Virus record (IMG/VR): IMGVR_UViG_3300021373_000346
Location: 1 to 33,712 of that record
Origin: a virus
Length of the DNA stretch: 33,712 nt
Direction: 5' to 3' (one strand)
Shown: in pieces, positions 1 through 33,712 of the stretch
Layout: each line of letters opens with the position of its first letter
How positions within the stretch are numbered: the stretch's first letter is position 1
Translations under genes and position numbers: made by a program
The notes under the pieces: model-generated
What the model was told of the DNA's origin: nothing
What the model saw: only the letters and a program-made list of their open reading frames with translations
Databases searched by the model: none

Positions 1-108
1 TGGATGCACACATGCTGACACTGTAGCTAATACATGGGCAAAGCACACAACCAATGTCAATGTAGAAGGCAGCGCAGCCAAGATACAAGCAGGGCTTGAA
101 GCATTTCT
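1..108. repeat. Terminal redundancy, left copy
   Basis: These 108 bases match the last 108 bases of the window with two differences, at 13 (t here, c at 33617) and 91 (a here, g at 33695). Both fall in third codon positions of the DUF932-like gene (His and Ala codons) and change no residue. The overlap closes the contig into a circle. It reflects either circular permutation with terminal redundancy or a direct terminal repeat, and the sequence alone cannot separate these. Confidence 0.95.
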
Positions 109-490: not shown

Positions 491-501
491 AGGAGAACTA
501 A
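491..501 (+). promoter_or_regulatory. Extended early ribosome-binding element AGGAGAACTAA (first of eight copies)
   Basis: The element occurs ahead of the start codons at 503, 1193, 2697, 3774, 4570, 32164, 32991 and 33162. Six copies carry GGAGAACTAA exactly; the copies before 2697 and 3774 diverge only at the last A positions. Only AGGAG is needed for Shine-Dalgarno pairing, so the conserved AACTAA is extra. GGAG-to-start spacing is 6-8 bases throughout, which fixes the start codons. Leftward late genes use varied Shine-Dalgarno sequences without the AACTAA extension. Confidence 0.85.
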
Positions 502-921: not shown

Positions 922-1183
922 TATAACTGGCAGACGCACAGTCGAGGAGTTCCTTGAATGCAGAGAATGCAACAATCAAATGTTTTCCGAACAAGATACT
1001 TGCACTCATTGCAAAAGTGATGATCTGAAATGGATGACACAGTACACAGTTTACAAAGTTGTGTACGCTGAAGATGAAGGCGATGCTATCGAAACAGCAT
1101 TAGATATGATGACTGATTTTGAAGCAGCAAGCGGTAAAATTGTCATCGAGTCTGAACGCCAATCAAAAACCCCTGTAATATAG
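905..1183 (+). CDS. Zinc-ribbon early protein (92 aa)
   Basis: Residues near 17-37 contain two CxxC pairs, CREC and CTHC, separated by about 12 residues, a classical zinc-ribbon spacing. The remainder is acidic and helical (AEDEGDAIETALDMM). The gene overlaps the upstream stop by 17 bases. Its TAG stop (1181-1183) lies within the Shine-Dalgarno of the next gene, so coupled translation is likely. Zinc ribbons of this size in phages often bind nucleic acid or host transcription proteins, but no partner can be named here. Confidence 0.7.
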   Translation: MIFRTDITGRRTVEEFLECRECNNQMFSEQDTCTHCKSDDLKWMTQYTVYKVVYAEDEGDAIETALDMMTDFEAASGKIVIESERQSKTPVI

Positions 1184-1192
1184 GAGAACTAA

Positions 1193-2543: not shown

Positions 2544-2743
2544 AGTACCGCGACAAGTCTAACTTTCCAAACCCATTCACTGTAGTTAGAGATGTGCTGT
2601 TCTACAAGCGCAGGGAAGGCAAACCTAAAACACTAATCATCTTTGATGGTGATGTCTTTGAAGAAAAGATAGCACCATTATTGAAGGAGAACTATGATGG
2701 CATTCCTACTAATGGCGAGGGCAATCAAGGCAGAGATACCTGA
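2372..2743 (+). CDS. PD-(D/E)XK-like nuclease, possible Holliday-junction resolvase type (123 aa)
   Basis: The start at 2372 (MASKSRAKGDYHERV) has GAGG eight bases upstream. Early KGDYHERVFVKWLQKIGF, then GGEYSGDIIW and VVEVKYRD match the order of a restriction-endonuclease-like core: helix with a conserved Glu, Asp in SGDI, then ExK in EVKY. The size is typical of resolvase-like or VRR-type phage nucleases. It probably processes branched DNA produced by the recombination module (YqaJ exonuclease and ERF protein) encoded downstream. It overlaps the next gene by about 47 bases. Confidence 0.7.
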   Translation: MASKSRAKGDYHERVFVKWLQKIGFKAKRQPLSGALGGEYSGDIIWQVGQNPLVVEVKYRDKSNFPNPFTVVRDVLFYKRREGKPKTLIIFDGDVFEEKIAPLLKENYDGIPTNGEGNQGRDT

Positions 2744-3753: not shown

Positions 3754-3773
3754 AAATCAAAAGGAGAACTACT

Positions 3774-4568
3774 ATGAATAGAATTGGATTTCTTGGCGGC
3801 TCAGATATGCGCCGCATTATGGATGGCGATTGGATATCGCTATGGGAACAGAAGACAGGACGCTCTGAGCCTGACGATTTATCTACAAACCTAGCTGTGC
3901 AGCTTGGCATACATACTGAATCATTCAACATCGAATGGTTCAAAGATAATGTGCAAGCTGAGATTACACACGAGCAGCATGAGTTCATGCTCAACTGGTA
4001 CAACATACCACTCAAGGGTCAGGTCGATGGCATGCTCAAGCTGCAAGACCCTAACGATAAAATAAATATTCTTGAGTGCAAGCACACATACGAGATGAAC
4101 AAGATGGAGTCTTGTCTCAGTATGTACATGCCACAAATGCAATTCTATATGTGGTTAGCACAAGCAGACGGATGTTACCTGTCAGTTATCTTTGGCAACA
4201 GACGTTGGGAATGTGTGTATGTCTCAAAGGATTGGGACTATATCAAAAGAATGCAAGTGCATATCACTGAGTTCTGGAGGCATGTTACTGAGAACACACG
4301 CCCTTTCGGTGACAACGAAGTGCCACCTGTATCTATAGATAAGATCAAGGTCGATGGCATGACCAAGCGTGACGCATCAAGCGACAATGAATTCATTAGC
4401 AGATGCCATGACTATATCGAACAAGAGAAATCAGCAAAGCTATTTGAGTCAGCCAAGTCTGACCTCAAAGCTATGGTTGGTGACGATGAGCGAGAAGTAT
4501 ACTGTGATCTTCTAGCCATCAAACGCGATAAGCGCGGATCATTACGCATCACAGTCAAGGAGAACTAA
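3774..4568 (+). CDS. YqaJ-family (lambda-type) recombination exonuclease (264 aa)
   Basis: The family pattern is clear: GGSD at residues 8-11, W and KTG near 24-29, E49 in GIHTES, GQVDGM with D85, and ILECKH with E101 and K103 as the PD-(D/E)XK catalytic core, then a PQMQFYMWL helix. Such enzymes resect double-strand ends 5' to 3', leaving 3' single strands for an annealing protein. It is preceded by its own promoter and by the extended ribosome-binding element, and is followed one base later by the ERF gene, a typical exonuclease-annealase pair. The length is normal. Confidence 0.88.
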   Translation: MNRIGFLGGSDMRRIMDGDWISLWEQKTGRSEPDDLSTNLAVQLGIHTESFNIEWFKDNVQAEITHEQHEFMLNWYNIPLKGQVDGMLKLQDPNDKINILECKHTYEMNKMESCLSMYMPQMQFYMWLAQADGCYLSVIFGNRRWECVYVSKDWDYIKRMQVHITEFWRHVTENTRPFGDNEVPPVSIDKIKVDGMTKRDASSDNEFISRCHDYIEQEKSAKLFESAKSDLKAMVGDDEREVYCDLLAIKRDKRGSLRITVKEN

Positions 4569-5025: not shown

Positions 5026-5393
5026 TGTTTAATAACAAAAAAGAATTGCAAGACATCCAGCGCAGACTCAACCACATCGAAGCAAACATCAACAAAGTTA
5101 TATGGATGCTAAGAGAAAAGCCTGAGAAAACAATTGATCAAGCTTTCGTAAATCAATTTGAGTCAGAAGTAGAGCAAGAATATAAACGATTAGGAAGAAA
5201 GAAAAGGACTTACCCTATGAAGTTTGTAGCTTGCGTAATGGGTAGGTACAAAACAATTGATGAGATGTGCAATGAACTACAGTTAACAGAAAGTTCAGCG
5301 CGTACCTACCTTAAGCTTGCCAAGAAAGATGGCATTGAATTTAACACACGCAGATCAGGTAAAAAATTATCTTACAAAGTGAGGAAAATCTAA
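5025..5393 (+). CDS. Early helix-turn-helix protein with a capsid-N-terminus-like segment (122 aa)
   Basis: The ATG at 5025 is chosen (GAGGAG at 5011-5016); a GTG two codons upstream is too close to it. Three parts are visible: an N-terminal coiled coil (about residues 4-32), a segment at 36-61 (TIDQAFVNQFESEV, then Y, R, G, K, R), and a helix-turn-helix (about 75-105; TIDEMCNELQLTESSARTYL) with a basic tail. The middle segment matches residues 4-29 of the major capsid protein at 16 of 26 positions. The product is probably a DNA-binding regulator; why it carries a capsid-like segment is unknown. Confidence 0.75.
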   Translation: MFNNKKELQDIQRRLNHIEANINKVIWMLREKPEKTIDQAFVNQFESEVEQEYKRLGRKKRTYPMKFVACVMGRYKTIDEMCNELQLTESSARTYLKLAKKDGIEFNTRRSGKKLSYKVRKI

Positions 5394-5809
5394 TGAGCGA
5401 ATATGATAACACTAACCGCGGCGCAGCCTTCAAACCATTCCCAGAGCAGCAGTTTATCCTGCAAGGTAAACTCAACATCATGGGCGAAGACGGCCAAGTT
5501 GCACTCATCATGGCTGAGTCACGAGATGGCAACAAGCGCATTGAAGTATTTCAGAAAGTTGGATGCTTGTTTCCCAACGACAAAAAGGGCAACGAGAAAG
5601 CACCAGACTACAGCGGCCCACTAGACGGATTGCATCAAGACTGGAAGATTGCAGCTTGGAAAGAAATGAAAGGCGACAACGCATACATGTCGCTGAATGT
5701 TTCAGAGTACAAACCCAAGCCAGTAGATGATGAAATACCTGAGTTCGGTGACAACATCAAAGATGAAAATGTGACTAGCAAAGTAGAGCCAGAAGATGTA
5801 CCATTCTAA
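5393..5809 (+). CDS. ssDNA-binding-like protein with acidic tail (138 aa)
   Basis: The body is a predicted beta-rich, OB-fold-like domain (QFILQGKLNIMG, QVALIMAESRDG, WKIAAWKEMKGDNAYMSLNV). The C-terminal 35 residues are acidic and end PEDVPF, like the protein-interaction tips of SSB proteins. There is some resemblance to DUF736-type small proteins, so the assignment is not certain. It closes the recombination group, overlapping the upstream gene by one base, and is followed by the stem-loop and terminator of the rightward block. Role inferred: coating resected single strands for the ERF protein. Confidence 0.65.
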   Translation: MSEYDNTNRGAAFKPFPEQQFILQGKLNIMGEDGQVALIMAESRDGNKRIEVFQKVGCLFPNDKKGNEKAPDYSGPLDGLHQDWKIAAWKEMKGDNAYMSLNVSEYKPKPVDDEIPEFGDNIKDENVTSKVEPEDVPF

Positions 5810-5810
5810 A

Positions 5811-5835
5811 GCAGGTTGATTAGTTCTCCGCCTGC
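5811..5835 (+). ncRNA. Stem-loop whose loop is complementary to the early ribosome-binding element
   Basis: GCAGG (5811-5815) pairs with CCTGC (5831-5835), leaving a 15-base loop. Within it TTAGTTCTCC (5820-5829) is the exact reverse complement of GGAGAACTAA, found before most rightward genes. It lies two bases after the stop of the last early gene and four bases before the terminator stem, so the rightward transcript ends with a seed-in-loop hairpin plus terminator, the layout of many 3'-UTR small RNAs. In the leftward transcript the loop would present GGAGAACTAA itself. Regulation is inferred. Confidence 0.45.
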
Positions 5836-5839
5836 TAGT

Positions 5840-5876
5840 GGGTCAGCCGTTTCCCAAATTACGGCTGACCCATTTT
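5840..5876. terminator. Terminator hairpin between the convergent operons
   Basis: GGGTCAGCCGT (5840-5850) and ACGGCTGACCC (5861-5871) form a perfect 11-base-pair stem with a 10-base loop. Rightward it is followed by ATTTT, a short U-tract; leftward the hairpin starts two bases past the M15 peptidase stop but has no U-tract. It is the only strong hairpin between the two convergent gene blocks and probably ends rightward transcription, and perhaps leftward transcription less efficiently. Confidence 0.75.
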
Positions 5877-6324
5877 AAGTTATCAAACCTTTACGATAAC
5901 CATTTTCTTTATCGTAGGTAAGAACTTCTTTCCGATTACCCTCTGCTTTATAGCTACAATGAACCCATCCAGTATTACCACCAGTGTAATGCTCAAGAAT
6001 AATCTGATCGAAATCTAGGCTAGATACAATCCAACTACACAACTCTAGGTTAGATACATTAGGCACTTCAAAGTCAGCAGCCTCACCCTTTGCATGCTGA
6101 CTAGCTACTGAACTACCAATAGCAACACACAACTCAGCACTACGATACCCGCTAGAGGGGGTAAACGGCACACTGAAGTGGGTTCGCACTGGCTCTAGTA
6201 TATTCTCACACAAAAGTTTCATCGCCTCTATATGCTCATCTGAGGGCGAATTAGGTAAGCCTCTACGCAAAGCTGTCTGGCTCTTGGTCATTTCTTCCAA
6301 GCTAAAATGTTCTGATAGTTTCAT
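5875..6324 (-). CDS. M15-family peptidoglycan peptidase, endolysin (149 aa)
   Basis: The Peptidase_M15_3 pattern is complete: SGYRSAEL at about 58-65, SQHAKGEAADFE with zinc ligands H77 and D84, ILEHY with E111, and WVHCSY with H122. This is the D-Ala-D-Ala carboxypeptidase / L-Ala-D-Glu peptidase fold used by phage endolysins to cut peptide cross-links. There is no signal peptide, so it needs the holin encoded just upstream (4-base overlap). It is the last gene of the leftward block, as expected for lysis genes expressed late. Confidence 0.9.
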   Translation of the reverse strand: MKLSEHFSLEEMTKSQTALRRGLPNSPSDEHIEAMKLLCENILEPVRTHFSVPFTPSSGYRSAELCVAIGSSVASQHAKGEAADFEVPNVSNLELCSWIVSSLDFDQIILEHYTGGNTGWVHCSYKAEGNRKEVLTYDKENGYRKGLIT

Positions 6325-32143: not shown

Positions 32144-32163
32144 AGCTAACTAGGAGAACTAAA

Positions 32164-32964: not shown

Positions 32965-32990
32965 GCAAGTATGCAACAAGGAGAACTAAC

Positions 32991-33149: not shown

Positions 33150-33161
33150 GGAGAACTAACA

Positions 33162-33712
33162 ATGGATGGAGTAACTGTTATAGGCAACAGCCTAGTAAAA
33201 GATAACTGGTCTTTCCCAGTAGAAACAGTCAACCTTACAGCAAGCAAAGACAATGACTGTAACCTGTATGATGTGCCGCAATCAATGGCACGAGCTATCA
33301 TGCGTACAGATACTAATGAAGTGCTTGGTGTTCATGGCTCTAAGTACAAAGCAATTAAGCATGACGATGTAGTTAACTCAGTCATGGATGCTGTCAGTCA
33401 ATCAAATGTATCTAAAGATTACGATACAAAAATTGAAATCTTTGATAACGGTGCCAAGCTACGAGGCACTATCGACTTCGCTGACCTAGTGATGGAGCCA
33501 GCAGTTGGTGACTATGTAAGATTCCGTGTCCAGTTCTTTAACTCATACGACAGTAGCTGGGCATTCCAACAATCAGCATTCGGCTTGCGCTTGTGGTGTC
33601 TTAATGGATGCACACACGCTGACACTGTAGCTAATACATGGGCAAAGCACACAACCAATGTCAATGTAGAAGGCAGCGCAGCCAAGATACAAGCGGGGCT
33701 TGAAGCATTTCT
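33162..33712 (+). CDS. DUF932 (phage/plasmid-like) protein, 5' part of the gene continuing at base 1
   Basis: The start (MDGVTVIGNSLVKDNWSF) follows the extended element at 33149-33159. Visible family features are YDVPQSMARAIMRTDTNEVL, LGVHGSKYKAIKHDDVV and DFADLVMEPAVGDYVRFRVQ, then SAFGLRLWCLNGC. The frame is open to the last base and rejoins the frame at base 2 through the terminal overlap, giving 290 residues in total. DUF932 proteins are widespread in phages and plasmids and their biochemical role is not established. Confidence 0.9.
   Translation, partial: MDGVTVIGNSLVKDNWSFPVETVNLTASKDNDCNLYDVPQSMARAIMRTDTNEVLGVHGSKYKAIKHDDVVNSVMDAVSQSNVSKDYDTKIEIFDNGAKLRGTIDFADLVMEPAVGDYVRFRVQFFNSYDSSWAFQQSAFGLRLWCLNGCTHADTVANTWAKHTTNVNVEGSAAKIQAGLEAF
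33605..33712. repeat. Terminal redundancy, right copy
   Basis: Copy of bases 1-108 with two silent differences (33617 c, 33695 g). Once one copy is removed, the unique genome is 33,604 bases. No gene or stop interrupts the junction, which lies in the middle of the DUF932-like gene, so the contig ends were set by assembly and not by a natural end of the genome. Confidence 0.95.

What the first reader, a model, noticed from the sequence alone, without database searches (positions are those of the whole stretch)
5811..5876. Operon-junction hairpin presents an anti-ribosome-binding seed next to the terminator
The 15-base loop of the stem 5811-5815/5831-5835 contains TTAGTTCTCC, the exact complement of the GGAGAACTAA found before six rightward genes and nearly so before two more. 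It directly precedes the terminator hairpin, the layout of a 3'-UTR-derived small RNA with its seed in a loop. Once the early operon is transcribed to its end, the RNA could shut off translation of all early genes that carry the element. Read leftward, the late transcript would carry a decoy copy of the element. A given 10-mer is expected about 0.06 times by chance in both strands of this genome.
Basis: partly seen in the sequence, partly recalled or inferred. Interest (0 to 1): 0.66.

Follow-up and report, generated by a model that had tools for sequence, protein, structure and literature searches.

The report
Phage RNA loop matching early-gene leaders
At the end of its early genes this bacterial virus carries a short RNA hairpin whose loop is the exact complement of the ribosome-binding sequence used by those same genes, and many relatives keep the match even where both sequences have changed, which suggests a built-in RNA off-switch for early protein making.

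Summary
Observation confirmed: loop 5820-5829 (TTAGTTCTCC) is the exact complement of GGAGAACTAA, found before six early genes, with two near copies. It follows the stop of an ssDNA-binding-protein (SSB) gene and precedes a terminator; the 74 nt fold with z -7.0.

It is not chance. In 22 of 52 SSB-cluster representatives GTTCTCC lies within 60 nt of the SSB stop (expected 0.34); phages with GTTCTC there carry GGAGAAC leaders (20 of 21, against 3 of 23 without; tree-aware test under-powered). Where the seed sits in a loop, stems are replaced wholesale and loop and leader co-vary beyond the core (1.59 vs 0.61 nt, p 1.7e-4, 10 clusters). In 9 clusters with an unpaired seed they do not.

Best explanation: a 3'-UTR RNA that pairs with early leaders and blocks ribosome binding, an RNA counterpart of T4 RegA. 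No transcript data exist; a free small RNA and the shut-off are inferred. In some Cluster K mycobacteriophages the unexplained lone reverse SAS copy also sits in a hairpin loop. Not in Rfam. New variant of a known kind.

The parts
5393..5809 (+). single-stranded DNA-binding protein gene, last early gene; its 3' UTR carries the element. Its own leader (GTGAGGAAAATCTA) lacks the GGAGAAC element
   Evidence: PHROG 18154 'single strand DNA binding protein', E 8e-8, matched by 22 of 22 family members; no Pfam match
5810..5836 (+). seed-bearing stem-loop: 5810-5816 paired with 5830-5836, loop 5817-5829
   Evidence: fold of 5807-5880, -36.7 kcal/mol, z -7.04; 100% of cells paired, 3 of 7 pairs with changes on both sides; different 7-10 bp stems in other clades
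5820..5829 (+). anti-leader seed TTAGTTCTCC
   Evidence: exact complement of GGAGAACTAA; GTTCTCC core in 22 of 52 cluster representatives; mean unpaired probability of the 7-nt core 0.73 in L001, whose element is identical
5839..5876 (+). intrinsic terminator, stem 5839-5850/5861-5872, loop 5851-5860, tail TTTT
   Evidence: sequence and fold; many relatives have longer T tails
492..501 (+). leader GGAGAACTAA before ORF 503 (70 aa, unknown)
   Evidence: duplex -15.7 kcal/mol
1183..1192 (+). leader GGAGAACTAA before ORF 1193 (120 aa, PHROG 1123, unknown function)
   Evidence: duplex -15.2
2686..2695 (+). leader GGAGAACTAT before ORF 2694 (replication initiation protein)
   Evidence: PHROG 1032, E 4e-21; duplex -14.3
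3763..3772 (+). leader GGAGAACTAC before ORF 3774 (YqaJ/RecE-like exonuclease)
   Evidence: duplex -14.2
4559..4568 (+). leader GGAGAACTAA before ORF 4570 (Erf ssDNA-annealing protein)
   Evidence: duplex -15.2
32153..32162 (+). leader GGAGAACTAA before ORF 32164 (138 aa, unknown)
   Evidence: duplex -15.2
32980..32989 (+). leader GGAGAACTAA before ORF 32991 (52 aa, unknown)
33150..33159 (+). leader GGAGAACTAA before ORF 33162 (PHROG 1221, unknown function; runs into the window end)

Best explanation
The loop is an antisense seed. The early operon's transcript ends in a 3' UTR that presents GUUCUCC (here UUAGUUCUCC) in a hairpin loop or, in other clades, as an unpaired stretch, followed by a terminator hairpin. 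Shown: the sequence match, the predicted structure with compensatory changes, conservation, co-occurrence with the leaders and, for the loop form, co-variation with them. Inferred: the 3' end acts as an RNA, most likely in trans as a terminator-capped 3'-UTR small RNA, pairs with the GGAGAAC ribosome-binding leaders of the phage's replication and recombination genes, hides their Shine-Dalgarno sequence and lowers early translation once the operon has been transcribed to its end. The SSB gene that would make the RNA mostly lacks the leader, so it could escape its own product. Late genes in the window lack it too. It would do with RNA what RegA protein does in phage T4.
For: 1) Placement: GTTCTCC within 60 nt of the ssb stop in 22 of 52 cluster representatives, expected 0.34, the most common 7-mer of all. 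2) Co-occurrence: at least two GGAGAAC leaders in 20 of 21 representatives with GTTCTC and 3 of 23 without. 3) Co-variation: contiguous match beyond the core 1.07 nt for own loop against 0.50 for other clusters' loops, p 1.5e-4 (19 clusters); p 1e-3 for 15 super-clade representatives; loop form alone 1.59 vs 0.61, p 1.7e-4 (10 clusters). Examples: loop TGGTTCTCC with 16 of 16 GGAGAAC leaders reading GGAGAACCA in G005 and G006; loop TCTGTTCTCC with three GGAGAACAGA leaders in L080. 4) Structure: perfect 7-10 bp stems of unrelated sequence around the same seed, compensatory changes within the window's clade, z -7.0. 5) Specificity: in 23 records 153 of 164 forward GGAGAAC copies precede a start; 23 of 32 reverse copies lie in the 140 nt after ssb (records mostly chosen for having the element). 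Predicted pairing is stronger to early than late starts with p < 0.05 in 16 of 22 genomes (window p 0.06). 6) Precedent: alphaproteobacterial NfeR1 silences an mRNA through anti-SD motifs in unpaired parts of hairpins (passages of PMC10746234).
Against: No RNA or protein data; neither a stable fragment nor repression is shown. In the 9 clusters where the seed is not in a stem-loop there is no co-variation beyond GGAGAAC (0.48 vs 0.54, p 0.61). The L101 cluster and L243 keep leaders without the complement in the DNA held. L334, a 51-member cluster, has the element but only one leader counted in its representative. Tree-aware support for co-occurrence is thin: 3 independent pairs on supported branches, nearly always agreeing, too few for significance. 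The minimum-energy fold pairs two seed bases weakly. In Hodr and MEP301, cultured phages with a similar terminase, I saw neither element nor leader.
Confidence: 0.7

Rival explanations
1. Cis action: the seed works only within the polycistronic early mRNA, pairing back to one or more upstream leaders of the same molecule (long-range mRNA folding, perhaps controlling decay or re-initiation), without a free small RNA.
For: The element lies in the 3' UTR of the same gene block as its targets, and I identified no separate promoter for it.
Against: Several leaders at distances up to thousands of bases share one seed; a separate stem-loop plus terminator is the usual layout of 3'-UTR small RNAs (general knowledge). 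Not excluded by any test here.
Confidence: 0.16
2. Protein site: the leader and its reverse copy are binding sites for a phage protein, for example the ssDNA-binding protein regulating early mRNAs, and the complementarity is incidental.
For: The element lies beside the ssb gene; T4 gp32 and RegA act on initiation regions (passages of PMC3014915).
Against: An RNA-binding protein would need the same strand in both places, but the 3' UTR holds the complement; loop and leader change together in the loop form.
Confidence: 0.05
3. The 3' UTR is a sponge or protector: pairing prevents a host anti-Shine-Dalgarno small RNA or nuclease from acting on early leaders, or activates them.
For: Alphaproteobacteria have small RNAs with anti-SD loops, and two of three genome-collection relatives fall in Rhodobacterales bins.
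Against: The 3' UTR is complementary to the leaders, not to host anti-SD loops; pairing at the SD is expected to block initiation.
Confidence: 0.05
4. Chance or terminator by-product in this genome.
For: A 10-mer match has expectation 0.078 per genome and was picked after the fact.
Against: 22 of 52 representatives against 0.34 expected, and co-variation.
Confidence: 0.02
5. Leftward decoy: the late leftward transcript carries a copy of the leader that titrates a regulator.
For: In the window the next gene is leftward.
Against: In several clades the next gene is rightward, and the terminator T tail serves rightward transcripts.
Confidence: 0.02

Closest known systems
Alphaproteobacterial 'cuckoo' / alpha-r14 small RNAs (NfeR1; related CcsR RNAs of Rhodobacter)
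   Same: Constant C/U-rich anti-Shine-Dalgarno motif in unpaired hairpin regions, stems differing freely in sequence; NfeR1 shown to silence by pairing at the initiation region (passages of PMC10746234). CcsR RNAs are cut from the transcript of a small protein gene ending in a terminator (passages of PMC10253847).
   Different: Those are host RNAs; NfeR1 carries CCUCCUCCC three times and targets host mRNAs. Here the seed is GUUCUCC plus a clade-specific extension matching the phage's own leaders, usually one copy, in a phage operon. No Rfam match.
Start Associated Sequences (SAS) of Cluster K mycobacteriophages
   Same: A long conserved RBS-overlapping sequence before a subset of non-structural genes, one orientation, with a lone reverse copy in Anaya, Adephagia, Angelica and CrimD (passages of PMC3203893). 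I find that copy in a hairpin loop in a gap between annotated genes in Adephagia and Anaya.
   Different: Different sequence, host and gene order; loop TCCTATC found in 6 of 11 records examined; the reverse site was noted but not explained in the passages seen.
Phage T4 RegA translational repressor
   Same: Phage factor that blocks initiation on about 30 mRNAs (passages of PMC3014915).
   Different: RegA is a protein; here the candidate regulator is RNA.
Known phage-derived small RNAs (VpdS, PreS, sar, c4, DicF)
   Same: Phage RNAs acting by base pairing (passages of PMC12197685).
   Different: In the passages seen these act on host RNAs or on single phage mRNAs; none was described as matched to a repeated leader of a whole early regulon.

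Membership tests
3'-UTR-derived base-pairing small RNA | lies in the 3' UTR of an mRNA and ends in an intrinsic terminator | tested here: met
3'-UTR-derived base-pairing small RNA | accessible seed complementary to initiation regions of several mRNAs | tested here: met
   (prediction)
3'-UTR-derived base-pairing small RNA | conserved target complementarity (co-variation) | tested here: met
   for the loop form; not beyond the 7-nt core in the other form
3'-UTR-derived base-pairing small RNA | stable processed or separately transcribed short RNA | not testable with these tools
   no transcriptome of these uncultured phages on hand
Cuckoo / alpha-r14 small RNAs | CCUCCUCCC motif in hairpin loops, several copies | tested here: not met
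   seed is GUUCUCC, one hairpin; no Rfam hit; L045 has a second GTTCTCC in the terminator loop
Cuckoo / alpha-r14 small RNAs | constant loop motif, freely varying stems | tested here: met
Cluster K SAS system | 13-bp GGGATAGGAGCCC before start codons | tested here: not met
   leaders here are GGAGAAC plus extension
T4 RegA family | RegA protein | not tested
   not searched for by name; 9 window proteins scanned against Pfam and 10 references against PHROGs gave no such name

The most novel reading that the evidence does not exclude
Unrelated phage groups have independently evolved the same RNA feedback device: an extended ribosome-binding leader shared by the early regulon plus one reverse copy displayed in a hairpin loop of a terminal non-coding RNA, which turns early translation off. 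It would cover at least this large group of uncultured phages and part of the Cluster K mycobacteriophages, and would explain the Start Associated Sequences.
Probability: 0.35. Interest if true: 0.88.

Novelty: new variant of a known kind. Interest (0 to 1): 0.74.

Why it matters
Early-to-late control in phages is usually ascribed to transcription or to repressor proteins such as T4 RegA. A phage RNA tuned to the leader of its own early regulon, and co-evolving with it, would be a simple general timing device. It offers an explanation for unusually conserved ribosome-binding sites of unknown function in other phages (SAS of Cluster K), and it is directly testable in cultured Cluster K phages.

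Tried and rejected
Rfam: no match for the window stretch, for two sets of ten sources or for the Adephagia gap. No similar DNA or SSB protein in the phage collection. The terminase led to Hodr and MEP301, where I saw neither leader nor element in the starts and operon ends printed. A third leader-rich phage, Microbacterium phage AnnaSerena (SAS-like motif, passages of PMC7302621), has no convincing reverse copy in a hairpin loop in record bases 8000-56707 (four matches with 3 mismatches, all unconvincing): a negative for the convergence idea. Cluster K: 11 records examined around the gap; TCCTATC in the loop in 6 (Adephagia, Anaya, Yunkel11, Curiosium, Amelie, Niklas), not in Ekdilam, Shandong1, Yuna, PhelpsODU and ShedlockHolmes; no CTCCTAT-type reverse copy in the TM4 and Pixie stretches fetched, though leaders are there. 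In Ekdilam, Shandong1 and PhelpsODU the loop is only C/U-rich while the leader is unchanged, so no co-variation is shown in that group. I looked for changed leaders in clades whose 3' UTR has altered letters (L312, L342, L057, L242, L257, L099, L168) and found no matching change. The automatic stem search picked a competing wobble stem for L001 and L015; the hairpin described is supported. Some folds were cut at a poor place (L030, L156, L316, L237). Papers: the searches listed no report of such an RNA; the library lacks most subscription journals, and the claim rests on those listings and the passages read only.

Full report
What is there. The window is a phage record of 33,712 bases with early genes running rightward (about 32.1 kb to the end and 1 to 5.8 kb) and late genes leftward ('early' and 'late' are inferred from gene content and layout). 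[quoted passage not shown] all 22 family members scanned match it; Pfam finds nothing. Directly after its stop codon comes a 7-bp stem (5810-5816/5830-5836, one G-U pair) with loop TGATTAGTTCTCC, then a 12-bp terminator hairpin and TTTT. The 74 nt from the stop fold at -36.7 kcal/mol against -15.2 +/- 3.1 for shuffles, z -7.0. TTAGTTCTCC in the loop is the exact complement of GGAGAACTAA, which precedes six early genes, with two near copies. Genes with the leader include a replication initiator, a YqaJ/RecE-like exonuclease and an Erf annealing protein.

Relatives. Four protein scans with single SSB sequences and one with an alignment (viral contigs) plus one of genome contigs gave loci with an SSB relative. 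One search read 237 SSB proteins (of 279 loci entered; loci whose gene start or end could not be read were dropped) and clustered them at 85% identity into 53 clusters. One representative per cluster was used; one search examined the 52 clusters with at least 100 nt after the gene.

Presence. GTTCTCC lies in the first 60 nt after the SSB stop in 22 of 52 representatives; the expectation from first-order random sequences is 0.34 (largest of 2000 runs: 3), and it is the most frequent 7-mer of all. The element stays at the end of the operon when a gene is inserted before it (L019). In clade L050-L056 it appears about 410 nt further on, as GTTCTCCATTCTCC within a terminator-like hairpin (GTTCTCCATGCTCC in L056), while L051 and L056 have a leader GGAGAATGGAGAATC, a longer match of the same kind; L050 shows no leader in the DNA held. 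These are not in the counts above.

Two forms. In clades A (L001-L026), B (L027-L040), C (L042-L046), D (L047, L156, L304), E (L080, L090, L092, L095), and in L306 and L316, the seed is in the loop of a 7-10 bp stem, and stem sequences differ wholesale between clades. Within clade A, 100% of hairpin cells pair and 3 of 7 pairs have changes on both sides; the whole structure is 97.6% paired against 94.7% in shuffles (11 distinct rows). In the other form (L157, L166, L220, L300, L323, L334, L340, L341, L343 types) the seed comes right after the stop, mostly unpaired, followed by one or two hairpins and a long T tail. The mean probability of the core being unpaired is between 0.36 and 0.97 over the elements, apart from L237, whose seed lay outside the stretch folded.

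Leaders and loop change together. With own loops the contiguous match beyond the core averages 1.07 nt, with other clusters' loops 0.50 (permutation p 1.5e-4, 19 clusters with at least two leaders; 15 super-clade representatives p 1e-3; matches at position 8 alone 0.57 against 0.32). Split by form, a post-hoc split: loop form 1.59 against 0.61, p 1.7e-4, 10 clusters; other form 0.48 against 0.54, p 0.61, 9 clusters. So the extension is tuned only in the loop form; the other form shares just the 7-nt core. The permutations treat clusters as independent, which they are not fully. Examples: G005 and G006, loop TGGTTCTCC, all 16 GGAGAAC leaders read GGAGAACCA; window clade, loop TAGTTCTCC, most leaders GGAGAACTA; G010 and G011, loop GTAGTTCTCC, several GGAGAACTAC; G012 to G015, loop CTGTTCTCC or TCGTTCTCC, with mixed AACAG and AACGN leaders. 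Weak cases are clade C (G008), G016 and the F and G types (G017-G025).

Leaders and element occur together. Of 44 representatives with at least 2.5 kb upstream, 20 of 21 with GTTCTC have two or more GGAGAAC leaders, and 3 of 23 without (Fisher 2e-8). This ignores relatedness. On an SSB tree the element changes at least 7 times and the leader trait at least 10; of 3 independent pairs on supported branches 2.8 on average agree and 0.0 disagree, which cannot reach significance. Exceptions: L101 and L243 have leaders without the element in the DNA held, checked on the whole record for L101 (7 copies on one strand, none on the other); L334 has the element with one leader counted.

Specificity. In 23 records (21 fetched with the element, G027 without, and the window; chosen mostly because they have it) 153 of 164 early-strand GGAGAAC copies precede a start, and 23 of 32 reverse copies lie within 140 nt after the SSB stop. 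In the window one of the nine counted copies (29538) lies inside the late region and is probably spurious. Predicted duplexes of the loop with start regions are stronger for early than late genes with p < 0.05 in 16 of 22 genomes; the window itself is p 0.06 with a crude gene caller that includes false ORFs; its six called leaders score -14.2 to -15.7 kcal/mol and the best late start -13.3. The SSB gene itself mostly has another leader, AAGGAGCCAGAAGC or a close variant in about half of the clusters, so it could escape regulation.

Mechanism. Base pairing over the Shine-Dalgarno sequence is expected to block 30S binding. The precedent is NfeR1 of Sinorhizobium: anti-SD motifs in hairpins, stems free to vary, silencing lost when the motifs are mutated (passages of PMC10746234). 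The order of events proposed (operon transcribed to its end, 3' end accumulates, early translation falls) is inference. Trans action is preferred over cis because one seed serves many leaders, but no test here separates them. The host is not known; two of the three genome-collection hits lie in Rhodobacterales bins and one in an Opitutae bin, which is weak evidence.

A parallel elsewhere. Pope et al. 2011 (passages of PMC3203893) describe Start Associated Sequences in Cluster K mycobacteriophages and a single opposite-orientation copy in four of them, unexplained. In Adephagia and Anaya that copy, GGCCTCCTATCCC, sits in the loop of a long hairpin within a gap of about 400 nt between annotated genes. 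The region has matches in 145 Mycobacterium phage records (some records annotate a hypothetical protein there). Of 11 records looked at, 6 keep TCCTATC in the loop and 5 do not; TM4 and Pixie keep leaders but no reverse copy of the kind searched was found. AnnaSerena is negative. The parallel is suggestive only.

Verdict. Observation confirmed; the core of the reading (RNA antisense seed against early leaders) is well supported by comparison; small RNA and shut-off are untested; the leftward decoy is not supported. New variant of a known kind: an anti-SD loop is a known device of bacterial small RNAs; a phage family in which a 3'-UTR loop tracks the leader of its own early regulon was not found in Rfam or in the paper searches listed.

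Noticed in passing
start region of the SSB gene in about half of 53 clusters, e.g. L257 before 6001, L312 before 4738: An almost invariant leader AAGGAGCCAGAAGC (sometimes GGAGCCAAAAGC) directly precedes the start of otherwise diverged SSB genes. It may be an operator for SSB autoregulation, as with T4 gp32.
   Followed up: no
Adephagia JF704105 about 58,600-58,790 (L344:28600-28790) and homologues in 145 Mycobacterium phage records: Conserved structured gap between annotated genes with several hairpins; one loop holds the lone reverse SAS copy in part of Cluster K. No Rfam match.
   Followed up: partly
terminator loops of L042, L043, L045, L080, L092, L156 and L246: The terminator hairpin loop itself often carries a second C/U-rich anti-SD-like stretch (GTTCTCCTCCC in L045, TTTCCTCCCC in L042), so two loops may act.
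   Followed up: partly
window 1-108 and 33605-33712: The ends of the window repeat about the same 108 bases with a few differences, so the record is probably a circular or permuted genome of about 33.6 kb assembled from mixed strains; the gene at 33162 seems to continue at position 1.
   Followed up: no
L059 and L061, about 370 nt after the ssb stop: Stretch TGTGTTCTCCC with leaders GGGAGAACACACATG (L061) and GGAGAACACACAATG: another clade-specific extension not counted in the statistics because it lies beyond the 140-nt limit.
   Followed up: partly
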